Shown: positions 42,129 to 55,196 of the stretch, piece after piece
Layout: every line of letters begins with the position of its first letter
Position numbering within the stretch: position 1 is the first letter of the stretch
The notes under the pieces: generated by a model
Told to the model about the DNA's origin: nothing
The model's database searches: none
What the model saw: the letters and a program-made list of their open reading frames with translations, nothing else
Translations under genes and position numbers: made by a program
Source of the DNA: Ralstonia sp. NFACC01
GTDB taxonomy: Bacteria > Pseudomonadota > Gammaproteobacteria > Burkholderiales > Burkholderiaceae
Length of the DNA: 64,000 bases
NCBI RefSeq assembly: GCF_900115545.1
Contig: NZ_FOWV01000003.1
Coordinates: 496,001 to 560,000, forward strand
Reading direction: 5' to 3'

Positions 42129-42593
42129 ATGAAATGCCCCTTTTGCGGCCACGCGGCCACCCAGGTGATTGATACCCGCATGTCGGAAGAAGGCGACACC
42201 GTGCGCCGCCGCCGTCGTTGCGAATCCTGCGACCGCCGCTTCACGACCTACGAACGTATCGAGCTGTTCTTTCCGGCCGTCGTCAAAAAGAACGGCAGCC
42301 GCGTCGACTATGACCGCAACAAGGTCAAGGATTCCATGCGGCTGGCGCTGCGCAAGCGCCCCGTATCCGCCGAGGCCATCGACGAGGCCATCGCCCGCAT
42401 CGAAGAAAAACTCCTCAGCCACGGCGAGAAGGAAATCGGCAGTGACCGCGTGGGCGAGCTCGTGATGCGCGAACTCAAGCGGCTGGACAAGATCGGGTAC
42501 ATCCGGTTTGCGTCGGTGTATCGGAGTTTTGAGGATCTGGCAGAGTTTCGGGACGTGTTGGATGAGGTTGCGGCGACGAATGTGCGGAAATAG
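42129..42593 (+). CDS. nrdR: Transcriptional repressor NrdR
   Basis: A 154-residue repressor of ribonucleotide reductase genes. The N-terminal zinc ribbon is [15 protein letters not shown] plus [16 protein letters not shown] (residues 3-51), followed by the ATP-cone domain ([20 protein letters not shown]). It senses ATP/dATP and binds NrdR boxes. GAGGAGA precedes the ATG. It is followed by a bidirectional terminator. Confidence 0.97.
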
Positions 42594-42594
42594 A

Positions 42595-42620
42595 AAAGGG
42601 CCCAGATGGGCCCTTTCTTG
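42595..42620. terminator. Bidirectional terminator between nrdR and pilE
   Basis: AAAGGGCCC, loop AGAT and GGGCCCTTT form a nine-base-pair perfect stem. The plus strand continues TTTCTTGTTTTC and the minus strand also has a T-run (CCCTTTTC). It sits between the convergent nrdR and pilE genes. Confidence 0.9.
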
Positions 42621-42627
42621 TTTTCTG

Positions 42628-43110
42628 TTACCAACACTGTGCTGACGTGGTACCCGCAGCCATGTTGGCGTTGCCTTGCACGCCGAGTTGGTTGATGGTG
42701 TATGTCCCACACGCATCGGCCGTCTGCGGACTGACCGGAACAGCGGAAGCGGAATAGCCGGGCGCTGCAGCACCACTCGCGCCGGCCGTGCCCGTTACCG
42801 CAACATTGAGCTGATAGTACGACTGCGTGCCAGACTGAATGGCGAACGGAAAACTCGCCGCCGCATAGCCGAGTGAAGCGGGTGACGCAGCGTAGTTATT
42901 CTGCAGCGTAAAAAACCGCTCCTGACGCACTGCCAAATCCAGCAGTGCGGTCTTCGCGTCTGCCCGGTGCGATTTGAGGATGTATTGCTGGTACGACGGA
43001 TAGGCAATACGGGCCAGGATGGCGATGATCGCTACCGTGATCATCAATTCCATCAGTGAGAAACCGCCTTCGCTACGCGACAGGGCAGACGTTGCATTTC
43101 GGCTCATCAT
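42628..43110 (-). CDS. pilE: Type IV minor pilin PilE
   Basis: A 160-residue type IV prepilin. The leader ends SRSEGG and cleavage would give mature FSLMELMITVAIIAILA with Glu at position 5 and the hydrophobic assembly helix. The C-terminus has a cysteine pair (DACGTY and QCW) framing the usual disulfide loop. It is the last gene of the fimT-pilV-pilW-pilX-pilY1-pilE operon; its ATG at 43110 overlaps the pilY1 stop (TAATG), with a second ATG directly after it. Confidence 0.9.
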   Translation of the reverse strand: MMSRNATSALSRSEGGFSLMELMITVAIIAILARIAYPSYQQYILKSHRADAKTALLDLAVRQERFFTLQNNYAASPASLGYAAASFPFAIQSGTQSYYQLNVAVTGTAGASGAAAPGYSASAVPVSPQTADACGTYTINQLGVQGNANMAAGTTSAQCW

Positions 43111-46100
43111 TAGCGTAGCTTGGTCCAAGTCATGCGCGAGCCGACACCAGCTGCGCTCGGGTTGATCTGGTTCACAGTACCTGTTCCGCTCACAGTTTGC
43201 TGCACCAGATACGGCAGCTTGTTGGCGGTCACGATAGACGGTGTGCCGGTACCACTCAAACCGATACCGCTGACAATGCCGCCGTTGAGAGTCGGGAAGT
43301 TATTGTTGTTGTCACCGAAGAACGAGGCAGTGCCCGCCCCACCCGATGCGACAGAGATCGCCATGGTGTAGCCAGACGCAGGCGTCGAGGTACAGGACAA
43401 AACCTGTTGGGTTCCTGGCACCGTAGTGTTGACGATGAACATGCCATAGGCCAGCGTTGGGTTATAAACCACCTGCTCATAGTTGGTGACCGCGCTCGAA
43501 CCAGAGCCCGTGGTGGTGCTTGGCAACGCGAGCTTCCAGCCGAACTGGGTATTGGCAGTACTGCTGGTGCCACACGTTGTCGAACCCACCCAGCACACCT
43601 TGTTGTTGCTCACAGTCCGGTACGACGGCGTCGTGCCCGAGCTGACCGAGGTGTTCGTAATGCTCTGCGTCTGCAGAGTCGACGCAGTCACTGTCTGCGG
43701 GCCCGTCAGAGTTGCATAAACCTCAGCCGCCGGTGCGATCGCGTTCCAAGCGTTCATGTTCCAGTCCCAGACACCATACAGAGACTGCGCAGTGTTGCTG
43801 GAATAGGCGGCAGCGCTGGTCTGCGTTACGGGGAAAGCCTGACCCGTGCCGAAGCTGACGAGCACACGCGGCGCGCCCGTGCCGCTACCCGGGATGGCGG
43901 CGACCGCCACCTTGCTGGTAATCGGTTGACCGGCCGGCGTTGAGAACAGCGGCGCGCTGGAAACGCTCCACGATGCAGGATTTTGCGACGTCAGATCGAA
44001 ACGCCAGACGTTGCCGAACGCATCGCCTGCGTACACGTAGTCGGTAATGTGGTCGCCATCAAGATCCGCTGGCGTTACATAGGCGATGCCGTTCTTGTTG
44101 TTCGCTTTCAGGGGGTCCTTGCTCGGACCGTAGCCAGTGTCGAGGTAGTAGAAGGATGTGGTTCCATCGCTTGCCACCAGCATGATGTACAGACCTGCGC
44201 CACCGCTCGAGCTATTCAAACCATTTCCGAACAGCACCGCCCAATTGCCATTGTGGAGACGCCGGATCACTGGGGTCCCGTAGGTGTTACCAAGATAGCT
44301 GGCACAACCGGCGACGTTGGTGCACTTGAGGTTGGCGGACGACCATTCGCCGATAACCAGCGAGCTGGCGTTGCTCTCACTAAAGTTCGCGGGATTAGTG
44401 ATATCAAGGGCATAAAGAGCGCCCGTGCCTACGCTCGTGTTGTCCGCAATCGCCCCGGCGGCATTGCCACCACCACCCAGCCCACCGACCAGCCACGTAT
44501 GCCAGGCATTGTTGTAGTAAAGCTCGCCTGTACCGGGAGTCGCATCCACATACAGATTGTGGGCATACGACGGGGAGCTGAAATCCAGTTTGCCGTTGGT
44601 GTTGTAGATGGTGTTCAGGGCCGCCGCCGGCATGTAGGCAAGAACTTCCTTCCCGTCGTTCGGTGTCGTCGCCGTGGTGAACTTGCCGTTGGCATCGTAG
44701 CCCCCAGCACGGAAACCATGCAGCATGCCGTCATTGGCGCCCACGTACACAACATTGGCACGCTGAGCATTATTGGTCTTGAAGACGGCATAGCTACCGG
44801 CAGGTTCGGACGGTGTTGCCGACGAGTAAAGAGAATCCACCCAAGGCCCGGTATACGGTGCCGATGGCGCACCGACCCAGGTCGGGCTGGAATTCATAAT
44901 GTCGCCCATCACGCCAGTACGGGAGCGGAATGACCCACCATTGGCGACTTCATTGGTGCGATCACCGCGCAAATAAGCCTGGCGAGGGCTGCTTGCACCA
45001 CTGGCTGAGGCGCTGTCTAACGCAGACTTTTGCGCAGACGTAAGGTTTGACCATTGGAACGGAATGCCGCTGGTGCCATTCCACGTCAAAATGTTCCGCG
45101 CTGACGGGGCCTGCGCCGTCACAGTCGACGTAGAGCTGATAGCCGGGCATGCCCCGCCGGTCAGGGTGCAACTGGCATTCCAGTTGGCATTGGTCGCGAT
45201 GGAGACAATGCCCGTGGTCGGGTCCATCACTAGGTTCTGCGCGGTCAGCTCCCCCCACCAGTTCGTCGGATGGTAGTAGGCCAGATACACCTGCGTCCCA
45301 GCCTCCACGCGAGCCGATTGCTGCACGTTGGTACCCGCCGAACTGTTCGCCTGCCCGACTGGCGCAGCCTTGAAACAAGTAATTTCGTGCACGTTGCTGC
45401 CCCCGCCCGTACCGGCTGAGAAGCCGAAGCGGAATGACGCAGGCAACGGCCCATTCGACGCGGTAATGCTCTGGTTTGTGATCACAGGCTGGGCCGTGCC
45501 GCCATTCACGCTATATGAGAGGCTCAGCAGACCGTCTTGCGTGATGCTCAGCGCGTAGGTGATGGGCGTCGCGTTCCCGCGCACCGCCTTGCTTCCGCCG
45601 GCCGAGTTTTTCCCAGCAGCCTCCTGGCTGTACAGGGTCACGTTGCTGCCAAGCGTATCGCCCGAAATGTAGTTGTAGTTGTAGGTCAGCTTGTCGTTGG
45701 TTTTAGCGCCATTTTTGATGCTGGCGCCGGTCGAGTCTGTCTGCGTCGTGCCACTAAAGTTATAGAGATTGCCTGCAGCACAGGTTTTTTGCACGGCGCT
45801 CATCTGCGACGTCGCATTTAGGCCGGAAGGATAGTACTTGGGGTAAGTCGCCGACAGGTTCGCCCAGTTGGTATTGCCCGCGCCTCGCAAGCTGATGCGA
45901 TTGGGGATCGCGCCGACACCAGAGTTCGTGTTGTCCCCGGCGTTCGAAAAGTTGCCAAACTCGTCGATCCCCAGGCCGATATAACCACCCTGTACACCGT
46001 CGTACGTGGGGTTGCCGTTGGAACAGCTGTAACCGAGACTCCCCCCCAGCGCACCGACTGTCGCCGGTTTTGAGCCGTCGGCGAGAAAAAAGCTGATACC

Positions 46101-46535
46101 GTCCGCCCCAGACGCTTGGCCTGCGGCATTGTTGTAAGCGTTACCGCCGTAGGTCACCGTAGTGAACGTCACCTGAAGACCTTGATTGGTCGGGAAGGTG
46201 AAGTTAGAGACCACGGCACCCGTCTGGTTGTTACCGTTGCTACCGTTGGCAGTCGTATCACCGTTGGTCAAACGTAGAGCGCCCGAACCTACTGCATCCG
46301 GGAGCGTACCAGTGACACCGCCCACCAGGGTCGTACCACTGTAATAGCTGAGACCCGAACACGCCGGAATTGTGCCGCTGCCATTGCCCGCAGTCAGGCA
46401 GGCACCATTAAGGGCCTTCCAATTATACGAAGACGAGGCGCCCGTCAACGTGTCGCTGATCACCAACTGCGCCCTGGCAACCCCCGGCAGCAGCGCAGCG
46501 GTTGCCAGCAAACCCACCCGTTGAATTGTTTTCAT
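43110..46535 (-). CDS. pilY1: PilY1-type pilus tip adhesin with an N-terminal L-type lectin-like domain
   Basis: A 1141-residue secreted protein with signal peptide MKTIQRVGLLATAALLPGVARA. Residues about 27-390 resemble an L-type lectin: ADGISFFLADG (144-154), GLGIDEFGNFSN (187-198) and FRFGFSAGTGGGSNVHEI (368-385). From about 405 on it is PilY1-like: GVMGDIMNSSPTWVG, VVYVGANDGMLHGF (594-607), ALYALDITNP, and the calcium loop DLDGDHITD (D823, D825, D827, D831) followed by YVYAGDAFGNVWRFDL in the propeller. PilY1 primes pilus assembly, counters retraction and can act as adhesin. ATG 46535 sits in the pilX stop (TGATG); GTG 46538 is one codon earlier. The lectin assignment is motif-based inference. 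Confidence 0.88.
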   Translation of the reverse strand: MKTIQRVGLLATAALLPGVARAQLVISDTLTGASSSYNWKALNGACLTAGNGSGTIPACSGLSYYSGTTLVGGVTGTLPDAVGSGALRLTNGDTTANGSNGNNQTGAVVSNFTFPTNQGLQVTFTTVTYGGNAYNNAAGQASGADGISFFLADGSKPATVGALGGSLGYSCSNGNPTYDGVQGGYIGLGIDEFGNFSNAGDNTNSGVGAIPNRISLRGAGNTNWANLSATYPKYYPSGLNATSQMSAVQKTCAAGNLYNFSGTTQTDSTGASIKNGAKTNDKLTYNYNYISGDTLGSNVTLYSQEAAGKNSAGGSKAVRGNATPITYALSITQDGLLSLSYSVNGGTAQPVITNQSITASNGPLPASFRFGFSAGTGGGSNVHEITCFKAAPVGQANSSAGTNVQQSARVEAGTQVYLAYYHPTNWWGELTAQNLVMDPTTGIVSIATNANWNASCTLTGGACPAISSTSTVTAQAPSARNILTWNGTSGIPFQWSNLTSAQKSALDSASASGASSPRQAYLRGDRTNEVANGGSFRSRTGVMGDIMNSSPTWVGAPSAPYTGPWVDSLYSSATPSEPAGSYAVFKTNNAQRANVVYVGANDGMLHGFRAGGYDANGKFTTATTPNDGKEVLAYMPAAALNTIYNTNGKLDFSSPSYAHNLYVDATPGTGELYYNNAWHTWLVGGLGGGGNAAGAIADNTSVGTGALYALDITNPANFSESNASSLVIGEWSSANLKCTNVAGCASYLGNTYGTPVIRRLHNGNWAVLFGNGLNSSSGGAGLYIMLVASDGTTSFYYLDTGYGPSKDPLKANNKNGIAYVTPADLDGDHITDYVYAGDAFGNVWRFDLTSQNPASWSVSSAPLFSTPAGQPITSKVAVAAIPGSGTGAPRVLVSFGTGQAFPVTQTSAAAYSSNTAQSLYGVWDWNMNAWNAIAPAAEVYATLTGPQTVTASTLQTQSITNTSVSSGTTPSYRTVSNNKVCWVGSTTCGTSSTANTQFGWKLALPSTTTGSGSSAVTNYEQVVYNPTLAYGMFIVNTTVPGTQQVLSCTSTPASGYTMAISVASGGAGTASFFGDNNNNFPTLNGGIVSGIGLSGTGTPSIVTANKLPYLVQQTVSGTGTVNQINPSAAGVGSRMTWTKLR

Positions 46536-47125
46536 CACTGTTGTCCCAGATCTTTGGCGCCAGAACTGATGCGATAGGTGCTCTGCACCACTGCTGCTGT
46601 CGTCGCATCACCGCCAAAGCCATAGGCGGTGACTTGGTAAAGCTGTGCGAGCCCGTTCGGGCTCATACCGATGTAGTTGATGTACAAGCCTGGGACACCT
46701 GCGTAGTTGATATCCCCCGCCGGAGAGCTCGCACCGGCCATGCCTCCCCCGCCATTCGCCGTCATGGAAGGCGGCAGATAGGTTGAACCAACGCCCCACG
46801 GCAAAGTGGAAGGAGACGCCAGAGCGGTGTTGCACACCCGCATATTCGCAAGCGTGTTGCCGTTGTTTACACCCGAGCACGCGATGCCACTCGAGCCGTT
46901 GCCCTGCCCCAGCCACCATTCGCCGTACTGAAGGGCGCTCTGTGCTGCCTCAAGGGCACGCTGCTTATCGCGCGTATTGGCCGCAATCTTCTCTTGCAAG
47001 CCAAAGCTACGAAACATGCCAATAGCAAACAGCGTGAGAACCACCAACAGCAGCAGTCCAACAACGAGGGTGTACCCGCGGTCGGCGCGATTTGGCAGCT
47101 TGGGAAAACGCATGGTGGTGCTCAT
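46535..47125 (-). CDS. pilX: Type IV minor pilin PilX
   Basis: A 196-residue PilX/GspK-like minor pilin. The prepilin site is NRADRG then YTLVVGLLLLVVLTLFAIGMF, a mature helix without Glu5, as is usual for PilX. The following KIAANTRDKQRALEAAQSALQYGE is the family helix continuation. ATG 47125 overlaps the pilW stop (ATGA) and its own stop overlaps pilY1, so the set is translationally coupled. Confidence 0.87.
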   Translation of the reverse strand: MSTTMRFPKLPNRADRGYTLVVGLLLLVVLTLFAIGMFRSFGLQEKIAANTRDKQRALEAAQSALQYGEWWLGQGNGSSGIACSGVNNGNTLANMRVCNTALASPSTLPWGVGSTYLPPSMTANGGGGMAGASSPAGDINYAGVPGLYINYIGMSPNGLAQLYQVTAYGFGGDATTAAVVQSTYRISSGAKDLGQQ

Positions 47126-47865
47126 GACTGATTCTTCAGGCTGATGTTCTGCACCCACGTTGTGCTCTGCGCCTGCCCAACTTGGTTACCAAACTGTGTC
47201 GAAAAAGTGAGCTTGACCTGAACGGTATGGACTTGCGACCAATAGCCGGACGCCGCCACCTGTGCGGCAGTCAGATAAGAATCGTCATAGCCGTTGGTGT
47301 TGGTATCGGTGCCATACAGTACGCTCAGTCCGGTGACCCCACTCACCAGCGGTACCGTGGTCGTTACACCGCTGGACACAAGCGTCATCGCGCATTGCAG
47401 TTCGTTGTTGGCATTGACGGACAACGTGTTGATGTAGACCTGCTGAGCGCCGCTCGTGTTGGTCTGGCCCAAGCAGTTCATGGTGCCGTCGCCGCTGGCA
47501 GTCGCAAACTGCGTTGTTACCGTATCGGTACCTGCAGTGGCACCCGACGTACCTGAAATCACCTGGCCGGCGGCCAGCGAGCCATTCGCCGGGAATGCCG
47601 ATAGGGCCGTGTTGACTGTCGGGTTGGGGAAATACCCCGCCTGCTGTACAACATTGGTAAAGATGGTCAGCGCCAGTCGCTCATTGTCTTGCAACTGCGC
47701 AAGCTGATCCTGGCTCGTGAAGCTCTTCTGCATGTTCACGAATACAACCACCACGCCAGTCATGATGAACAGCGCGATGACCATGGCGATCAATATCTCG
47801 ACTAGGCTTGTACCGCCCTGGTTGCGAGCCGGTCGCATCCGGTGAGTCATCGAATTGGCGCTCAT
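47122..47865 (-). CDS. pilW: Type IV minor pilin PilW
   Basis: A 247-residue PilW protein. The leader ends ARNQGG and the mature helix is TSLVEILIAMVIALFIMTGVV with Glu5; the following DQLAQLQDNERLALTIFTNVVQQAGYF is a PilW signature. The C-terminal part is a beta-rich globular domain. It overlaps both pilV (upstream) and pilX (downstream) by ATGA. Confidence 0.9.
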   Translation of the reverse strand: MSANSMTHRMRPARNQGGTSLVEILIAMVIALFIMTGVVVVFVNMQKSFTSQDQLAQLQDNERLALTIFTNVVQQAGYFPNPTVNTALSAFPANGSLAAGQVISGTSGATAGTDTVTTQFATASGDGTMNCLGQTNTSGAQQVYINTLSVNANNELQCAMTLVSSGVTTTVPLVSGVTGLSVLYGTDTNTNGYDDSYLTAAQVAASGYWSQVHTVQVKLTFSTQFGNQVGQAQSTTWVQNISLKNQS

Positions 47866-48419
47866 GGCTGGACGTAGACCGTAAAGCTCTGGGTGGACGC
47901 CGTGACCACCCCAGACGCTGCCGTTGTGCTGTTGACCGCGACGTACTTTTCATTCCAGCTCACCGTGATATTGCAGCTCACTGGCACACCTGTTGCCGTC
48001 GTGCAGTTGACCGTGGCCGAATAGCCTGGGAAGTTCGCGTTCATCGTGCTGGCCCATTGCTGGACATCGTAAGCAGCCAATTGAGCCGGGGTGCAGGACT
48101 TCCCCGAAAGGCAAGCGCCCGCGGTCAGTGTCTGGTTCAACACATTCGAACTGTCTGTGATAGTCGTGCCCGTCACACTAAACGTCGCCGGGGCGGTACC
48201 TCCTGCAGCCCAGAAAGCGCTATTTCCGTGCATTGCCGCTGCCAGGCTTTCGGTCTGCAGCGCCACGAGCGAACGTACGCGCGAGATCTGCGTATTGCCC
48301 ACTGCCGCCGCCTGAATTTTCGCCAAACCCAACAGGCCTACGCCGACCACCACCATCGTGATAAGCGCCTCAATCAACGAAAAACCGGCGGCTTCACGGC
48401 GCTTCATACTCAGTTGCAT
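47862..48419 (-). CDS. pilV: Type IV minor pilin PilV
   Basis: A 185-residue PilV protein with leader MQLSMKRREAAG and mature FSLIEALITMVVVGVGLLGLA carrying Glu5, then the family sequence KIQAAAVGNTQISRVRSLVALQ. The globular part has four cysteines. ATG 48419 overlaps the fimT end by 10 bases and has AAGGGG upstream; ATG 48407 is an alternative giving a shorter leader. Confidence 0.88.
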   Translation of the reverse strand: MQLSMKRREAAGFSLIEALITMVVVGVGLLGLAKIQAAAVGNTQISRVRSLVALQTESLAAAMHGNSAFWAAGGTAPATFSVTGTTITDSSNVLNQTLTAGACLSGKSCTPAQLAAYDVQQWASTMNANFPGYSATVNCTTATGVPVSCNITVSWNEKYVAVNSTTAASGVVTASTQSFTVYVQP

Positions 48420-49009
48420 GAGCCGGACCCCTTCGTCTGTACGACTTGCCGACCGACAATGTTGATCGCCACGCAACGGGTCGCACTGTCATTCACAGGC
48501 GCCGCGGTATGCAACGTCATCGTGACAGTGCCATTGGCCAAATTGGTCGCGAAGCCATCGCGGTTATATGTCACCGCTGAAGCCGCCGGACTCGGCCTAA
48601 ACGTATCGCCGCTCGGAAGAGCGGCACGCACACGCAGCGGTACATCGTTGGTGGAATCCGTCGTACCTGAGCCGTTGACATCATTGAAGACGATCCAGCC
48701 GACTTCCCAATTACTCGTATTGGTCGTGTTGCATGCGGTGCCGTTGGATGACGGACAAAGGCTCACCGGCTGTCCACGCTTGATCGCCTCGCTGCGGGCG
48801 AATTGCAGATCATTCACCAGAGAATTGGCTTCGGCCTGCAACCGCGTCCGCTGTGTCAGCCCGACATACGATGGTGTCGCGATTACCGCAAGAACCGCTA
48901 CGATCGCCAGCGTCACCATCAGTTCAACCAGCGAGATGCCTCGGATGCGGTTCGAACGAATGCAACCGGCGCGCCCCCGCACGCCGCTTTCCCCATTCGG
49001 GTACGACAT
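48410..49009 (-). CDS. fimT: Type IV minor pilin FimT/FimU (GspH-like)
   Basis: A 199-residue minor pilin starting MSYPNGESGVRGRAGCIRSNRIRG, with mature ISLVELMVTLAIVAVLAVIATPSY carrying Glu5. The GspH/FimT core follows: EANSLVNDLQFARSEAIKRGQPVSLC and EVGWIVFNDVNG. It is the first gene of the minor-pilin operon. ATG 49007-49009 was chosen because it gives a plausible, if long, 24-residue leader; FimT of related species may bind DNA, which cannot be judged here. Confidence 0.87.
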   Translation of the reverse strand: MSYPNGESGVRGRAGCIRSNRIRGISLVELMVTLAIVAVLAVIATPSYVGLTQRTRLQAEANSLVNDLQFARSEAIKRGQPVSLCPSSNGTACNTTNTSNWEVGWIVFNDVNGSGTTDSTNDVPLRVRAALPSGDTFRPSPAASAVTYNRDGFATNLANGTVTMTLHTAAPVNDSATRCVAINIVGRQVVQTKGSGSCN

Positions 49010-49583
49010 ATCTGTATCAATTTGGCTGTGACACGACACGTTGTCAGCGCGAACGCCAACGACTTCGCCACGCCGCGTCCGTCGGCATTGAGACCAACGG
49101 TTGCGTGACGATTGAAATTGATGCGCGGTAAGGTGATTGCGGACCGCTGCCGCCATATCAGTCTAGGAAACGGCTGACTAGAAACCCGCATCGCCCAATG
49201 GGCGAAATCCCGTTAAGCATGACTCGAACCCCCGACTATTGTTTTATGCGGCAGTCACGACGCAATCGATTTCGCGCGCTGCCGATTCGAAACTGATTTG
49301 AGTTCTTCTACGCTGGCTCGCGTCCGACCCCCGTGAACGCGCCATCTGCTGGCCAAAAACGCCTAGGCAGATGCAACCCCGGAATAGTGGGGAATTAGTC
49401 AAAAAGTGTCAACAACCCCCTCCTTCAACCGCAAGATTGGGAAGGCGCATGTTGGCGAAAAACCAACGATCCGCCACATCACGGAATCCCGGACGCTCAA
49501 TTCTCGAGAGGGTATTGACGAGATATGACAGTTATACGGCCCACTTCGCACTAACTTGAACGGCTGACCAGTACCAGCCGATC
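49010..49583. other. Divergent intergenic region between the two minor-pilin operons
   Basis: 574 bases with no credible gene; short frames here show no pilin helix or family motif. It must hold the promoters of both operons. Visible elements are a small hairpin CGCCC-AAT-GGGCG (49192-49204) and TTGACG at 49514-49519 with TATACG at 49533-49538, whose 13-base spacing is too short for a standard sigma-70 promoter. I found no convincing sigma-54 site. Confidence 0.4.
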
Positions 49584-49775
49584 ATGCCTGTCCGCCCGCA
49601 CGTTACCCACCAACACGGCGTCATCCTGCTCGAGGCCCTTGTGGCCTTGGCCGTCCTCTCCCTGGCCGCTGCAGCCATGTTCCGCGCGCTCGATTATCTA
49701 GAGGCCTCCAGCCAAGCCGCCCGCGCGTTAGCAGCTGAGGCCCGCGCTCAAACCAACCAGATGGAAACCCGCTGA
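49584..49775 (+). CDS. Short PilV/GspI-like prepilin (helix-only)
   Basis: A 63-residue protein. The leader MPVRPHVTHQHG is followed by the mature helix VILLEALVALAVLSLAAAA with Glu5, then an amphipathic helix (RALDYLEASSQAARALAAEA) and a stop at 49773. It therefore lacks the globular domain of PilV (185 residues in the other operon). One base separates its stop from the PilW-like ATG. No downstream continuation in another frame was noticed, so it looks genuinely short rather than frameshifted. It heads the plus-strand operon. Confidence 0.7.
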   Translation: MPVRPHVTHQHGVILLEALVALAVLSLAAAAMFRALDYLEASSQAARALAAEARAQTNQMETR

Positions 49776-49776
49776 G

Positions 49777-50706
49777 ATGCCGCGCCCGCTCCCACGGCAT
49801 ACGCGAGGCGCGTCGCTGGTCGAACTGTTGGTCGGCATGGTCATCGCCTTGATGGTGTTGGCAATCGCATTGCAATTAATGCTGATCGCCCGGGCACATT
49901 ACCAGCGGTTGGCCGACGAAGCCCTCATTGAGGATCGCGGAATGCGTGCATTGGAGTTGATTGGCAAGGCGGTACGCCAAGCGGGGTGGATTACTGACAC
50001 GCCCACCGCTTCCGCCGTCCGTCGCTGGGCGGAGGCAACATCGCCATTGTCACTTGTCGGAGCGGACGACTGCGGCCAGCCAAAGAAAACTGTCGAACTG
50101 GAATGCGGTCCGCACGGAGTACAACACAGTGACGCATTGCTCGTCCGCTTCTCGGGCCGCAACCACCTGTCACCAACCCCCGACGAATCTGACGGCGCCA
50201 CGCTGGACTGCGACAACTACGGCGTACGAGAGCGTGGTGGAACGGAAGCCGATCCGCGCTTGGGAAGCATGTTGCTGTTCATCTCCGTCAGCACTGACGC
50301 CGAGCAGGCTCCGCGACTCATGTGCCGATCCTTGTCACGCAACAGTGGCGATGCCCTTGTTGCGGTGAACGCGAGCGAAGTCGTACGTGGAGTCGAGACG
50401 CTACAACTGCTGTACACGCTTGCACCCACATCGCAAGCCGAAACCGTATCCGCGCGGACCATGGCGGCCACAGATTGGTACCGCGTAGAGCAAGTCCATG
50501 TTGCCATCGTGGTACGCGGCGACTGGTATTCGCTCAGACCGTCAACACCAGACAATATCGCCCTATTCCCCGCATTTGAGTCCGTACTAGGCGCAAGCCC
50601 AGAAGACCTGTCCTTCCAGCCTGAAGATCCGCGCCGTAACCGCGCCCTCTTCACCGCCACGTTCGCCGTACGCAACCCACTCCGCTGCGAGGTCGACGCA
50701 TGCTGA
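49777..50706 (+). CDS. PilW-like minor pilin of the second operon
   Basis: A 309-residue PilW-like protein, longer than the canonical copy. The leader MPRPLPRHTRG is followed by ASLVELLVGMVIALMVLAIALQ with Glu5 and then DEALIEDRGMRALELIGKAVRQAGW, the PilW helix signature. A cysteine-containing globular domain follows (DDCGQPKKTVELECGPHG; DCDNYG; MCRSLSRNSGDALV). It overlaps the next gene by seven bases. Confidence 0.8.
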   Translation: MPRPLPRHTRGASLVELLVGMVIALMVLAIALQLMLIARAHYQRLADEALIEDRGMRALELIGKAVRQAGWITDTPTASAVRRWAEATSPLSLVGADDCGQPKKTVELECGPHGVQHSDALLVRFSGRNHLSPTPDESDGATLDCDNYGVRERGGTEADPRLGSMLLFISVSTDAEQAPRLMCRSLSRNSGDALVAVNASEVVRGVETLQLLYTLAPTSQAETVSARTMAATDWYRVEQVHVAIVVRGDWYSLRPSTPDNIALFPAFESVLGASPEDLSFQPEDPRRNRALFTATFAVRNPLRCEVDAC

Positions 50707-51314
50707 TCCAACAAACAAGCGTGCGCGGCTTCTCGATCATCGCAGTGACAGGCATGCTGATCATCATCAGCTTGCTGACGGTTACGGCCTTGCAACTCGT
50801 GCAAGACAACCTCCGCCGTACCGGTATGTCTGCAGACTATGCGATCGCTTTGCACGCGGCCGAGACTGCATTTGGCGCGGCCGAATGCGAACTTGCAGTG
50901 GCGACCGGTACACCAATCCGCAGAAACTGCCCCGTCACAATGGATGCGGCGCGCATTGCGGCACTTGATCCCGTGACTTTGGCTGGCTTTGTTCCCGGCA
51001 TCTGTGGGCAAGGCACCGAAGCCGGCCTGTGCTGGCCACTGCAGGGGCAATCGGCGTCGAAGCTCGCCAATCTGGTCCAGAGCGGTTCGCGCAGTGTGAC
51101 GCTCACAACCGCTGCGCAGCGTGACGGACTCAGCGCAACGCCGGCTCGCTATGTCATCGAGCCGATTCCTGACGCATTGCCGGGCCAGTGGCTACAAGCC
51201 GGCGCGGGGCGCCCGCCTTCGCTATTTAGGATTACAGCCGCAGGCTTTGGCATCAACCCGCAGATCAATGTGCTGCTGCAAACCGTTTTTCGCCCACGGG
51301 CAAACGAGCCATGA
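50700..51314 (+). CDS. PilX-like minor pilin of the second operon
   Basis: A 204-residue protein with leader MLIQQTSVRG and mature FSIIAVTGMLIIISLLTVTALQLVQDN, lacking Glu5 as PilX does. The segment MSADYAIALHAAETAFGAAECE corresponds to the AAQ/AAE-containing helix of PilX/GspK proteins. It overlaps both neighbours (seven bases with the PilW-like gene, four bases ATGA with the PilY1-like gene). Confidence 0.78.
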   Translation: MLIQQTSVRGFSIIAVTGMLIIISLLTVTALQLVQDNLRRTGMSADYAIALHAAETAFGAAECELAVATGTPIRRNCPVTMDAARIAALDPVTLAGFVPGICGQGTEAGLCWPLQGQSASKLANLVQSGSRSVTLTTAAQRDGLSATPARYVIEPIPDALPGQWLQAGAGRPPSLFRITAAGFGINPQINVLLQTVFRPRANEP

Positions 51315-53119
51315 AAGCATGTCAAATCTGTGTAGGGATCGTCATAGCGCAGGTCAGTTCAACGCTTGCCGCCACGGGCAGCAATCCCGCCGGTCAGCTG
51401 CCGACTCACATTGTCGTCGCGCCCGGCGCTGACCCTTGGAGCGGCAAACTCCGTGGGATGCAGTTTCTGCCCACACTCGGCACGCTCGATGCCCCGGCAC
51501 CGCCGGATCTTTGGGAGGCGAGCCGCCAGCTCCATGATGTCTCACCAGATGCGAGACAGCTGTGGACGTTTCATCGCAGTCAATCCGGCGTTCGCACGCC
51601 AGTCCGGCTGCGTTGGGCAACCCTATCGCCTGACCAGCAGACCGAAATTGCCACAAGCGACGAGCTTGGTACCCGACGCGTCGATTATCTGCGTGGCGTA
51701 CGGCAGCAGGAGCACGACGATCCCACGCTGCGGCCCCGCAAATCCGTGCTAGGCGCAATGCGGGGCGCACGCGTGCAATTGCTCGGCCCGCCGGGCTTCG
51801 CTCTCGATGCAAGTCACGAACCATTTCGCCAGCAGCACGCGCGCCGCCCATGGATGGTCTACATCGGCGCGAACGACGGCATGTTGCATGGCTTCGATGC
51901 GCTAAGCGGTATAGAGCGCTTCGCCGTCATCCCCGACGCCGCCCTGCCCACGGCTGTGCGCAATATCTCTCTCGGGCAACCGGTACCGGCGCCAATCTGC
52001 AGCCGACCCTTCGCAGCCGATGCGCTAGTCGGAAAGCAATGGCGGTCACTACTCGCTTGCCCAAATGGTGAAATGGGGTCGGGCATGTTTTTGGTAGACG
52101 TCACCGATCCGACCTCGTCCACGCCGCCACCCATGCTGGCCTATGACGCGAGCAACGATCCCAGTGTCGGCCACATGGCAGGCCCCATCCCTATCGTCCC
52201 CGTTAACAACGGCGGCGACGGACAACGCCGCTGGTTTGCCATCAGCGGTAATGGCGAAGGCAGCGAGCATGCGGAAAGCCGCCTGTTGCTCCTAGCGCTG
52301 GACCAACCCGGCACAGCTCTGTCGATCCAAGTGCCTCCAGTTGCCAGTCGGGGGGGCCTTGGAGCCCCTGCGGTGGCACTCGGGCCGCACGGAACAGCCA
52401 CCTTCGCTTACGTCGCGGACACGCATGGCCAACTCTGGCGCTTCGACCTGACGGGCGCGCCGCCTTGGTCGCACGCGCTGGGATTCAACGATACCGAGCG
52501 CCGCACGCCATTCTTCAAGGCCACCTCACGCGGCGGCTCCATCCAGCGCATTCTGAGTCCGATCCTCCTGGCGTCCACCGCTGGCGGTCCACTGCTTGTT
52601 TTCACCGCGGTCGGTACCGACGGGCATGCCACGCTGTATGGCGTCGCAGATACAAACATGTCTCGACGCAATCTATCGCGCGACAGCTTCGAAGGCTTGA
52701 GTACCAGCGAAGTATTAGATGGCGTGGTCATCAAGCCGGGAAGTAACAGCGTCGCAGGCTGGCGCATCGATCTGCCCACTGGCCAAAGGCCAGACGACCT
52801 GACCGCAGCCGGTCTGAACAGTTTGCTGCTCACCACACGCGACGCTACCGACCGGGAACGTACCTATCTGTTGGACGCGAAAACCGGCCTCCCCGTGAGC
52901 AAAGATGGGCGAACAGGCCGGGTTGTCCTCGGCGCACCGCTCATTACCGTACATAGCGCTCCGCCCGCCGAGACGCCTCGCGGTGGCGCCACGCAGGCGA
53001 CACACACCGTCCTGTGGCAACTGGATGGCGAACGTGTCCAGCAACTGGAATCGCGCACATACACGCGCCAACTCGGCCGACTCAGCTGGCGCGAAGTGAC
53101 CGAAGCCGGGGCACGCTGA
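51311..53119 (+). CDS. Short PilY1-like protein without lectin domain or canonical calcium loop
   Basis: A 602-residue protein with signal-like N-terminus (ICVGIVIAQVSSTLAA). It matches only the C-terminal part of PilY1: WMVYIGANDGMLHGFDALSG (181-200), MFLVDVTDP and FAYVADTHGQLWRFDL (365-380). The loop that in the canonical copy is DLDGDHITD reads LGPHGTATF here, so the calcium ligands are gone. The long N-terminal domain of PilY1 is absent. It overlaps the PilX-like gene by ATGA and the PilE-like gene by one base. It may be a minimal tip protein or a relic; intact length and coupling favour function. Confidence 0.8.
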   Translation: MKACQICVGIVIAQVSSTLAATGSNPAGQLPTHIVVAPGADPWSGKLRGMQFLPTLGTLDAPAPPDLWEASRQLHDVSPDARQLWTFHRSQSGVRTPVRLRWATLSPDQQTEIATSDELGTRRVDYLRGVRQQEHDDPTLRPRKSVLGAMRGARVQLLGPPGFALDASHEPFRQQHARRPWMVYIGANDGMLHGFDALSGIERFAVIPDAALPTAVRNISLGQPVPAPICSRPFAADALVGKQWRSLLACPNGEMGSGMFLVDVTDPTSSTPPPMLAYDASNDPSVGHMAGPIPIVPVNNGGDGQRRWFAISGNGEGSEHAESRLLLLALDQPGTALSIQVPPVASRGGLGAPAVALGPHGTATFAYVADTHGQLWRFDLTGAPPWSHALGFNDTERRTPFFKATSRGGSIQRILSPILLASTAGGPLLVFTAVGTDGHATLYGVADTNMSRRNLSRDSFEGLSTSEVLDGVVIKPGSNSVAGWRIDLPTGQRPDDLTAAGLNSLLLTTRDATDRERTYLLDAKTGLPVSKDGRTGRVVLGAPLITVHSAPPAETPRGGATQATHTVLWQLDGERVQQLESRTYTRQLGRLSWREVTEAGAR

Positions 53120-53517
53120 TGCGTCCCACGCGTGCATTCACCTTGGTCGAGTTGATGACAGTGCTTGTCGTCGTGGGGTTGCTAGCTTTTTTCGCGACAT
53201 CAAGCTGGTCTGCGTATTGGCAGCGTGCACATCGCGTCAGCGCGGGCGGCGCCTTAATCGGTGCCCTATCGCAACTGGAACTCCGGCGTGCGCGCACAGG
53301 TACGTACGATGGGGAGTCACCATTTCACGGCCCGGTCCCGCATGCGGGCGGTTACTCCATCCGCCCCCAGGCGTGCTCCAGCGCGGGTATAGAGCGGCCG
53401 AAGACTCAATGTATTGAAGTGGTCGCCGTTCCGGATAGAGCAGATGCCTCCTGCGGCAGGCTCGTTCTACGAAGCACCGGCGAACGCGAACCGCGCGACG
53501 CGGCATGTTGGCCATAA
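53119..53517 (+). CDS. PilE-like minor pilin of the second operon
   Basis: A 132-residue prepilin starting MRPTRA, with FTLVELMTVLVVVGLLAFFA following and Glu5 present. The residue before the predicted cleavage is Ala rather than Gly. After the helix it shows AHRVSAGGALIGALSQLELRRARTGTYDG, the PilE pattern, and four cysteines near the C-terminus ending in ACWP, comparable to QCW of the canonical PilE. ATG 53119 shares a base with the PilY1-like stop (TGATG). Confidence 0.78.
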   Translation: MRPTRAFTLVELMTVLVVVGLLAFFATSSWSAYWQRAHRVSAGGALIGALSQLELRRARTGTYDGESPFHGPVPHAGGYSIRPQACSSAGIERPKTQCIEVVAVPDRADASCGRLVLRSTGEREPRDAACWP

Positions 53518-54065
53518 CACTACCAATGCTAGCCACCCGGAAAGCAGGCGTGACCCTCTTGGAATTGGTGATCGTGCTTGCCATCCTCACTTTACTGGCC
53601 GTGATGGCAGTGCCATCGACCATCGACCGCTGGCAGCGCGAGACCGTGACGCTTCTCGCCGAACGCTTGGCCAGTACGATATCGCTCGCTCAGCGCACGG
53701 CTCAGCATCGACATCTTCAGACAGAAATCGCCCCTCGAAACGCCTCAACAGGCTGGGCTAGCGGGTGGGAACTGACAGTATTGGGAACGACAAGTACGCC
53801 CGGCGCAGCTACCGCGTCGGAGAGAGAAATCATGGTGTCCGTGCCATTGCCTACGGTGCCTGCGGTCCGGCTCAGCGTGCCTCGCGGCACGCTTTCCTAC
53901 GAGGCTGTGGGATACTCACGGATGACCGAAGTCACCGGCAACACAGTGACGATCTCTAGCGGACGCCATACGCGTCTAGTACGGATCAACACAGTTGGCC
54001 GCCCCCGAATCTGTGACCCAGATACGGACCGCAACAGTTGCCGAGCTTCCAATACTGATCCGTAA
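53505..54065 (+). CDS. FimT/GspH-like minor pilin of the second operon
   Basis: A 186-residue prepilin. From ATG 53505 the leader is MLAITLPMLATRKAG; ATG 53526 (MLATRKAG) is an equally possible start. The mature helix VTLLELVIVLAILTLLAVMAVPST has Glu5, and the region LLAERLASTISLAQRTAQHRHL is the GspH/FimT continuation. It overlaps the PilE-like gene by 13 bases if 53505 is used. Last gene of the second operon; ribD starts 18 bases later on the same strand. Confidence 0.75.
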   Translation: MLAITLPMLATRKAGVTLLELVIVLAILTLLAVMAVPSTIDRWQRETVTLLAERLASTISLAQRTAQHRHLQTEIAPRNASTGWASGWELTVLGTTSTPGAATASEREIMVSVPLPTVPAVRLSVPRGTLSYEAVGYSRMTEVTGNTVTISSGRHTRLVRINTVGRPRICDPDTDRNSCRASNTDP

Positions 54066-54083
54066 CCAGGCCGCATTACACCC

Positions 54084-55196
54084 ATGTTCTCCGACTTCGA
54101 CCACGCCATGATGCAGCGCGCCCTGGCGCTGGCCGAGAAGGGCTTGTTCACCACGACGCCCAACCCGCGCGTCGGATGCGTGATCGTGCGTGACGACACC
54201 GTCATCGGCGAAGGTCATACGCAACCCGCCGGCCAAGACCACGCTGAAATCCAGGCCATCAAGGATGCACAGTCGCGCGGCCAGGACGTGCGTGGCGCCA
54301 CCGCCTATGTGACGTTGGAGCCTTGCAGCCACTTTGGCCGCACCCCACCCTGTGCAGACCGACTGGTCGAAGCCGGTATTGCGCGCGTAGTCGCGGCCAT
54401 GGAAGACCCGAACCCCGCGGTTTCCGGTCGTGGCTTGCAGAAGCTGCGAGACGCCGGCGTCGACGTGCGTTGCGGTCTTCTGGAACGCGAGGCGCGCGAG
54501 CTGAACATCGGTTTCGTTTCGCGCATGACGCGCGGCACGCCGTGGGTGCGCGTGAAGGTCGGTGCATCGCTGGACGGCCGCACCGCGCTGGACAACGGCA
54601 TCAGCCAGTGGATTACCGAAACCGAAGCACGCAACGACGGCCACCGCTGGCGCGCACGCGCCTGCGCCATCCTCACCGGCATTGGCACGGTCCGCGAAGA
54701 CAATCCGCGACTGACCGTGCGCGCCGTCAATACCCCGCGCCAGCCGCGGCGTGTGCTGATCGACTCGGCGCTGGACGTGCCGCTCGACGCGCACATCCTC
54801 ACCGCAGATGGCCACCACGAGCCGACGCTGATTTTTGCCGCCCAGCCCGAAGCCGGCCGCATGCGTGCGTTGAGCGAGCGCGGCGCGGAGGTCATCCTCC
54901 TGCCCAACGCCGCTGGAAAGGTCGACCTGGCCGCGGTCCTGCGCGAGCTGGGCCGCCGCGAAATCAACGAGCTGCACGTCGAGGCCGGCTTCAAGCTCAA
55001 CGGCTCGCTGCTACGCGAAGGGCTGGTGGACGAGATCCTCGTCTATCTGGCGCCCAAGGTGCTCGGCGCGGGCCAGGGCATGTTCAATATGGGGCCGCTG
55101 CAGACGCTGGAAGGCGCGGCCGAATTCTTCTTTCACGACATCTCGCGCATCGGGGGCGACCTCCGCATCCTCGCGCGCCGCAACCCCACGGATTGA
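54084..55196 (+). CDS. ribD: Riboflavin biosynthesis deaminase/reductase RibD
   Basis: A 370-residue bifunctional enzyme. The N-terminal deaminase has the zinc motif HAEIQAI and TLEPCSHFGRTPPCAD; the C-terminal reductase begins near residue 150 (PWVRVKVGASLDGRTAL) and ends with VDEILVYLAPKVLG. It performs the two steps after GTP cyclohydrolase II. First of ribD-ribE-ribBA-ribH-nusB; the ribE ATG follows six bases after its stop. Confidence 0.95.
   Translation: MFSDFDHAMMQRALALAEKGLFTTTPNPRVGCVIVRDDTVIGEGHTQPAGQDHAEIQAIKDAQSRGQDVRGATAYVTLEPCSHFGRTPPCADRLVEAGIARVVAAMEDPNPAVSGRGLQKLRDAGVDVRCGLLEREARELNIGFVSRMTRGTPWVRVKVGASLDGRTALDNGISQWITETEARNDGHRWRARACAILTGIGTVREDNPRLTVRAVNTPRQPRRVLIDSALDVPLDAHILTADGHHEPTLIFAAQPEAGRMRALSERGAEVILLPNAAGKVDLAAVLRELGRREINELHVEAGFKLNGSLLREGLVDEILVYLAPKVLGAGQGMFNMGPLQTLEGAAEFFFHDISRIGGDLRILARRNPTD

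What the first reader, a model, noticed from the sequence alone, without database searches (positions are those of the whole stretch)
49584..54065. Second, divergent minor-pilin operon with reduced members
Six coupled plus-strand genes encode PilV-, PilW-, PilX-, PilY1-, PilE- and FimT/GspH-like proteins, back-to-back with the canonical fimT-pilV-pilW-pilX-pilY1-pilE operon and in the same internal V-W-X-Y1-E order. Each member is recognisable, yet several are shortened or changed. Seen: prepilin helices with Glu5 in four of the five pilins, and overlapping starts throughout. Inference: a separate priming complex for the same or another pilus, possibly building a shorter tip.
Basis: partly seen in the sequence, partly recalled or inferred. 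Interest (0 to 1): 0.75.

Follow-up and report, generated by a model that had tools for sequence, protein, structure and literature searches.

The report
Stripped-down second pilus-tip operon
These bacteria carry a second, slimmed-down set of genes for the tip of a grappling-hook-like pilus, and in some relatives the large tip protein has shrunk to a short end piece fused to its neighbour, which hints at the part that pilus building cannot do without.

Summary
In detail: six plus-strand genes (49584-54065) encode PilV-, PilW-, PilX-, PilY1-, PilE- and FimT-like proteins, divergent from a full-size operon (A). The genus is Ralstonia. This "operon B" lies at the same place, in open frame, in 16 of 16 genus genomes, under purifying selection where tested. 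It is reduced: PilV is a bare helix (51-54 aa mature) in all 16, and PilY1 is about 600 aa.

In 7 of the 16, pilY1 is gone, but PilX carries a C-terminal tail homologous to the end of PilY1 (core LGRLSWREL), joined by a fast-evolving linker. Operons A and B have been exchanged between species as separate cassettes. In a survey of 80 PilX loci of the order, Trp-bearing PilX tails occurred in 9 of 22 loci without a downstream pilY1 and 0 of 58 with one. Nine of 32 genomes checked have no detectable PilY1; all nine have tailed PilX and a PilQ match.

Best reading: operon B primes and caps type IVa pili with a small tip, and what is kept of PilY1 is the end strand that published models place in PilX's sheet. 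That step is inferred; I could not model it. Paralogous minor-pilin/PilY1 sets are known; I did not find the fusions or cassette exchange in the papers searched, but one directly relevant preprint was not readable.

The parts
49510..49541 (+). Conserved element 43-74 bases upstream of V2, possible regulatory site
   Evidence: Recognisable by eye in 15 of 16 genus genomes; exact to the pattern in 7 genomes; one copy in this genome at up to 3 mismatches. No sigma-70 match in 49100-54200.
49584..49775 (+). V2: PilV-like helix-only prepilin, 63 aa, about 51 aa mature
   Evidence: N_methyl over cut-off; mature 51-54 aa in 16 of 16
49777..50706 (+). W2: PilW-like minor pilin, 309 aa
   Evidence: PF16074 and N_methyl
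50700..51314 (+). X2: PilX-like minor pilin without Glu5, 204 aa, untailed here
   Evidence: PF13681; tailed in 7 of 16 relatives
51311..53119 (+). Y2: reduced PilY1, 602 aa, propeller matched, no other Pfam domain
   Evidence: PF05567; aligns with solved PilY1 3hx6, E 2e-26; present in 9 of 16
52946..53116 (+). C-terminal end of Y2, the stretch homologous to the PilX tail of 7 relatives (core LGRLSWRE)
   Evidence: Alignment; profile of Y2 ends scores 32-60 bits on the seven tails
53119..53517 (+). E2: PilE-like minor pilin, 132 aa
   Evidence: N_methyl over cut-off; ComP_DUS below cut-off
53505..54065 (+). T2: FimT/GspH-like minor pilin, 186 aa, ending in a GRxR motif
   Evidence: PF12019; GRxR in 16 of 16
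42628..49156 (-). Operon A: fimT-pilV-pilW-pilX-pilY1-pilE, divergent neighbour (outer limits as listed open frames)
   Evidence: replaced by other types in relatives
42129..42593 (+). nrdR, conserved flank of the interval
54084..55196 (+). ribD, conserved flank of the interval

Best explanation
Operon B encodes a second, compact tip/priming complex for type IVa pili, descended from a compact operon kept on the ribD side of the nrdR-ribD interval. FimT, PilV, PilW and PilX would form the cap, Glu5-less PilX on top, and the C-terminal strand of PilY1 (LGRLSWRE) would add to PilX's sheet and lock it. Shown: the genes, their conservation and reduction, the fusion of the PilY1 end to PilX in 7 of 16 relatives, the selection pattern on that tail, and the cassette exchange. 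Inferred: that the complex primes pili, that the tail is the strand that completes PilX, and that the tip carries little or no adhesin. The window's genome is at the intermediate stage, with a ~600-aa PilY1 still separate.
For: Same place and open in 16 of 16 genus genomes; dN/dS 0.15-0.40. Fused PilX: linker 0.85, tail core 0.15. Tail homology 32-60 bits against at most 1.8 for shuffles. Fusions form one clade with Y2-bearing G007 as sister. A and B exchanged separately. Order survey: Trp tails 9 of 22 without PilY1 downstream, 0 of 58 with it. Ten of ten genomes with untailed, PilY1-less PilX have PilY1 elsewhere; nine genomes without detectable PilY1 all have tailed PilX and PilQ matches. 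Published models put a C-terminal PilY1 strand in the PilX sheet (PMC11046646, passages; PMC13190605, section 2.2).
Against: No structure was obtained for any of these proteins. No expression or phenotype data. The survey test is not corrected for relatedness. Two of the 11 long tails in PilY1-less loci lack Trp (L200, L235), and the f41 and f28 tails match the LGRLSWRE core only loosely. Outside the order no short GRxxWRE-type tail was seen in 60 loci. The 7 fusion genomes still have a PilY1 in operon A, which could act in trans.
Confidence: 0.6

Rival explanations
1. Operon B is a DNA-uptake tip: FimT2 binds DNA through its C-terminal GRxR motif, PilY1's adhesin part is dispensable, and the operon serves natural transformation rather than attachment. 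This could also be true together with the best explanation.
For: T2 ends in GRxR in 16 of 16; it is the only one of the four GspH-family members of this genome with the motif. G-[R/K]-X-[R/K] is needed for DNA binding in several FimTs (PMC12040237 and PMC8897410, passages). In Kingella, transformation persists at about 2% without PilC1/PilC2 but is lost without fimTpilVWXE (PMC12607826, passages). R. solanacearum transforms through type IV pili (PMC7056806, passages).
Against: GRxR also ends FimT in unreduced operons of relatives (G003 operon A, both sets of G019 and G017), so it is not tied to the reduction. The PMC8897410 authors took orphan genes as FimT and operon genes as FimU. E2's ComP_DUS hit is below cut-off.
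Confidence: 0.25
2. Operon B is a redundant spare or dosage set: it raises the amount of priming complex for the same pilus and has no tip property of its own.
For: In M. xanthus either of two sets suffices for pili (PMC13190605, passages). In Vibrio cholerae the minor:major pilin ratio sets pilus activity (PMC13249403, passages). Operon A is present next to B in all 16 genomes.
Against: A plain spare would not be expected to keep a helix-only PilV in 16 of 16 or to lose pilY1 while keeping its end under constraint.
Confidence: 0.2
3. Operon B is a decaying duplicate, and the PilX tails are accidental leftovers of a deletion.
For: Members are shortened, and pilY1 has been lost in 7 of 16 relatives.
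Against: No broken frame seen in 16 genomes; purifying selection on every operon B gene tested, strongest on the tail core; similar tails in other genera; conserved upstream element.
Confidence: 0.04

Closest known systems
Myxococcus xanthus minor pilin/PilY1 clusters 1-3 (PMC7541494, PMC13190605)
   Same: Several paralogous sets of minor pilins with PilY1 in one genome, read as tips with different properties; modelled beta-strand addition between the PilY1 C-terminus and PilX (passages and section 2.2).
   Different: Those sets each keep a PilY1; no helix-only PilV, PilX-PilY1 tail fusion or cassette exchange was seen in the passages read.
Xylella fastidiosa paralogous minor-pilin sets (PMC9956873)
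   Same: Two operonic sets of pilEVWX/fimT/pilY1 paralogues with differing effects on twitching and transformation (passages).
   Different: No reduced PilY1 or fusion is described in the passages read.
Pseudomonas aeruginosa PilY1 (3hx6)
   Same: Y2 residues 120-383 align with the solved C-terminal part, E 2e-26.
   Different: Y2 is 602 aa; the alignment shows no DxNxDGxxD-type calcium motif, and none of 9 Y2s has one.
Vibrio cholerae competence pilus minor pilins FimT-PilV-PilW-PilX (PMC12040237, PMC13249403)
   Same: A core of four minor pilins with a G-[R/K]-X-[R/K] FimT (passages); no PilY1 is named as a component in the passages seen.
   Different: Whether its PilX has a comparable tail was not checked here.
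Ellison et al. 2026 preprint on beta-strand complementation in tip initiation complexes
   Same: By its title, the mechanism I infer. Only the reference entry and a one-sentence citation were seen.
   Different: Not readable here; it may already describe PilY1-free, self-complemented cases.

Membership tests
Type IVa minor-pilin/PilY1 priming set | Prepilin signal and hydrophobic helix in the pilins, Glu5 absent only in PilX | tested here: met
   N_methyl over cut-off in V, W, E, T; X2 has G|FSIIA.. without Glu5 and no N_methyl hit
Type IVa minor-pilin/PilY1 priming set | PilY1 propeller protein encoded with the pilins | tested here: met
   PF05567 37.3 bits against cut-off 28.1; not met in 7 of 16 relatives
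Type IVa minor-pilin/PilY1 priming set | Type IV pilus secretin PilQ in the same genome | tested here: met
   G000 PilQ 524 bits
Type IVa minor-pilin/PilY1 priming set | Complex primes pilus extension and sits at the tip | not testable with these tools
   needs mutants and microscopy
Full PilY1 adhesin | Large N-terminal region before the propeller | tested here: not met
   Y2 602 aa against 1142 aa in operon A; only the propeller family matched
Full PilY1 adhesin | Conserved C-terminal end with Trp (GRxxWRE type) | tested here: met
   Y2 ends LGRLSWREVTEAGAR; Trp in the last 30 residues of 58 of 58 surveyed PilY1s in the order
DNA-binding FimT (competence) | C-terminal GRxR motif | tested here: met
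   16 of 16 T2
DNA-binding FimT (competence) | Gene outside minor-pilin operons, as used for high-confidence FimT in PMC8897410 | tested here: not met
   T2 is the last gene of operon B
DNA-binding FimT (competence) | Binds DNA | not testable with these tools
   needs purified protein
PilX self-complemented by a PilY1 tail (proposed) | Tail homologous to the PilY1 C-terminus | tested here: met
   In 7 Ralstonia relatives, 32-60 bits; three g11 tails about 13 bits. Not present in the window's own X2.
PilX self-complemented by a PilY1 tail (proposed) | Tail strand pairs with the PilX sheet | not tested

The most novel reading that the evidence does not exclude
Tailed PilX is a self-complemented tip pilin: evolution has more than once, and in Ralstonia in a single traceable event, discarded PilY1 except for the C-terminal strand that PilX needs to fold and to license pilus assembly. 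PilY1's essential role in assembly would then be that strand alone, and the rest of PilY1 an exchangeable payload at the tip.
Probability: 0.45. Interest if true: 0.82.

Novelty: new variant of a known kind. Interest (0 to 1): 0.62.

Why it matters
Why PilY1, an adhesin, is also involved in starting many type IV pili is an open question, and the strand-addition answer rests, in what I could read, on structure models. Natural PilX-PilY1-tail fusions make it directly testable: one chain with the strand in cis and no adhesin body. The paired, separately exchanged operons between nrdR and ribD also offer a tractable case of pilus tips being swapped between species.

Tried and rejected
Rejected: decay. 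Rejected: pseudopilins of a type II system, because PilW, PilX and PilY1 families are matched; a separate GspH-family gene lies on contig C21 with further prepilins (the T2SS label is my inference). Left open: loss of the calcium site. None of 9 Y2s has the motif, but several full-size PilY1s also lack it by the same pattern, so it does not discriminate. GRxR lost weight once unreduced relatives also showed it. The sigma-70 scan found nothing. The NCBIfam scan gave no equivalog over its cut-off. The A1 profile missed the g11 tails, which I found by reading.

Survey limits. One search lists 86 rows; 80 were fetched and classified. The six dropped are the window genome's own two, G397, G486:C18, G326 and G545. 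One search lists 114 rows, 111 outside the order; I fetched 60 of the 111: the 30 best, then a hand-picked spread. Of these 60, 55 had PilY1 downstream, 1 of the 55 with a tail of 18 or more residues (29 aa, no Trp); 5 had none found: L252 and L255 untailed, L273 cut by a contig end, L302 with 18 residues and no Trp, and L286 with a 468-residue extension.

My working notes use some of these names.

Full report
What is there. The six genes are at the stated coordinates and in frame. I call them operon B: V2, W2, X2, Y2, E2, T2. Pfam gives PilW, PilX, PilY1 and GspH/FimT over their cut-offs, and the prepilin signature for V2, W2, E2 and T2. X2 lacks Glu5, as PilX proteins do (PMC7541494, passages). 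Four of the five junctions overlap; V2 and W2 are one base apart. Operon A lies divergently upstream with a 1142-aa PilY1. A third PilY1 set lies on another contig.

Which organism. The nearest named relatives are Ralstonia sp. SET104, R. soli and Ralstonia sp. UNC404CL21Col. The species of the window is not identified.

Conservation. The genus group holds 16 genomes including this one. In all 16, V2, W2, X2, E2 and T2 homologues lie in the same order between operon A (in part cut by contig ends in G001 and G014) and ribD. Mature V2 is 51-54 aa in all 16, so a helix-only pilin is a stable part of the set; in the compact operons of five g3 genomes the V gene is 132-152 aa as listed. Median pairwise dN/dS is 0.15-0.40 for operon B genes against about 0.02 for ribD (10 pairs among five fusion genomes and 3 pairs among three Y2 genomes).

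Reduction of PilY1. Nine of 16 have a Y2 of about 600 aa. Seven (G004, G005, G008, G009, G010, G012, G014) have no Y2; there PilX runs on for about 60 residues, the last ~45 of which align well with the end of Y2. A profile of the nine Y2 ends scores 32-60 bits on the seven tails, at most 1.8 on shuffled tails, and below zero on the seven of nine untailed X2 ends that were reported. Selection differs along the fused PilX: dN/dS 0.20 in the helix, 0.32 in the body, 0.85 in the linker, 0.48 in the tail and 0.15 in the tail core (five genomes). The fusions form one clade (support 1.0) with Y2-bearing G007 as sister, so one deletion event explains them.

Cassette exchange. The operon B tree disagrees with the ribD tree: G008 (fusion) and G011 (Y2) are sisters by ribD, and so are G010 (fusion) and G015 (Y2). 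Pairwise blastn shows the boundaries. G010 and G015 match at 93.5% on the ribD side and 90.2% through operon A and beyond, with operon B replaced between. G008 and G011 match at 97% on both flanks with nearly everything between replaced. G009 and G008 share operon B and ribD at 93.6% but differ in operon A. The window shares operon A with G005 (87.3%) and operon B with G011 (88.2%). By my grouping, operon A has types a, b, c and d, and a, b and c each occur with both the Y2 and the fusion form of B; d is G003 alone.

Outside the genus. I read six g3 genomes (L094-L099), chosen from the hits. Five show glyA, nrdR, a full operon, a compact operon with a PilY1 of 549-705 aa, then ribD; the sixth (L096) runs off the stretch. 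G017 and G019 have similar tandem arrays before ribD. So operon B descends from an older compact operon. Three g11 genomes have V-W-X-E-T without PilY1 and a PilX ending GRLSWREITTWDEM.... Four genomes of f8 genus g78 have a PilX with a long linker ending in ..GWREI(A/G)NW.., then E, T and ribD. PilY1s of two other f8 genomes end AGR(V/L)SWRELQNY..M, so the g78 and g11 tails resemble a PilY1 end with its extension, which the Ralstonia tails lack. I read this as at least two separate captures. In 299 family genomes, a PilX match reaching through the whole Ralstonia-type tail was seen only in the seven fusion genomes.

Survey. PF13681 matched in 72 of 250 genomes of the order, 86 rows. Of the 80 loci classified (68 genomes), 58 had PilY1 downstream and 22 did not. 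Tails of 18 or more residues: 1 of 58 (a Ser/Thr repeat without Trp) against 11 of 22. Also with Trp: 0 of 58 against 9 of 22, Fisher p 2e-6, not corrected for relatedness. The nine lie in five genera of three families. All 58 PilY1s have Trp in their last 30 residues. In 32 chosen genomes checked for PilY1, the 10 with untailed, PilY1-less PilX all have PilY1 elsewhere. Nine have none detected: three g11, five f41 and G472. All nine have tailed PilX, though G579's tail and one of G492's two have no Trp. All nine have PilQ matches; in G492 and G459 these are in pieces below the cut-off. Against a simple rule, the tailed Ralstonia, g78 and f28 genomes do have a PilY1 elsewhere. Outside the order, 60 of 111 rows were read: no short tail of this kind, though one PilX (L286) has a 468-residue extension ending TLSWMEMTL; 52 of 53 complete PilY1s have Trp in the last 30 residues.

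Mechanism. In M. [quoted passage not shown] The piece kept in the fusions is that end. The simplest reading is that PilX needs the strand, and that a lineage can lose the adhesin body if the strand is kept in cis or a PilY1 is supplied from elsewhere. This is inference; no model could be made here.

What it is for. A tip with little adhesin is most likely. DNA uptake is a fair rival: T2 ends in GRxR in 16 of 16 and alone among this genome's four GspH-family members; the motif matters for DNA binding in several FimTs (PMC12040237 and PMC8897410, passages), and R. solanacearum transforms through its type IV pili (PMC7056806, passages). But the motif also occurs in unreduced operons of relatives.

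Novelty. Paralogous minor-pilin/PilY1 sets are known (PMC7541494, PMC9956873). I ran ten paper searches; in their listings and the passages I read I saw no PilX-PilY1 tail fusion and no operon B in Ralstonia. The library holds no preprints, and Ellison et al. 2026 may already cover part of this.

Noticed in passing
L046:5801-12236 (G000 contig C3): A third set in the same genome: PilE-, FimT-, PilW-like pilins and a 1190-aa PilY1.
   Followed up: partly
window 49510-49541: A 32-base element upstream of V2, recognisable in 15 of 16 genus genomes and single-copy in this genome; function unknown.
   Followed up: partly
L043 (G017): Three minor-pilin/PilY1 sets in tandem before ribD.
   Followed up: no
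window 53119-53140 (E2 start): E2's prepilin cleavage site has Ala rather than Gly before the mature end; many relatives do too.
   Followed up: no
L286 (G783): A PilX frame with a 468-residue C-terminal extension ending TLSWMEMTL, possibly a larger PilX-PilY1-like fusion outside the order.
   Followed up: partly
window 42594-54083 and relatives: The nrdR-ribD interval behaves as an exchange hotspot: flanks 97% identical in G008 and G011, content replaced.
   Followed up: partly
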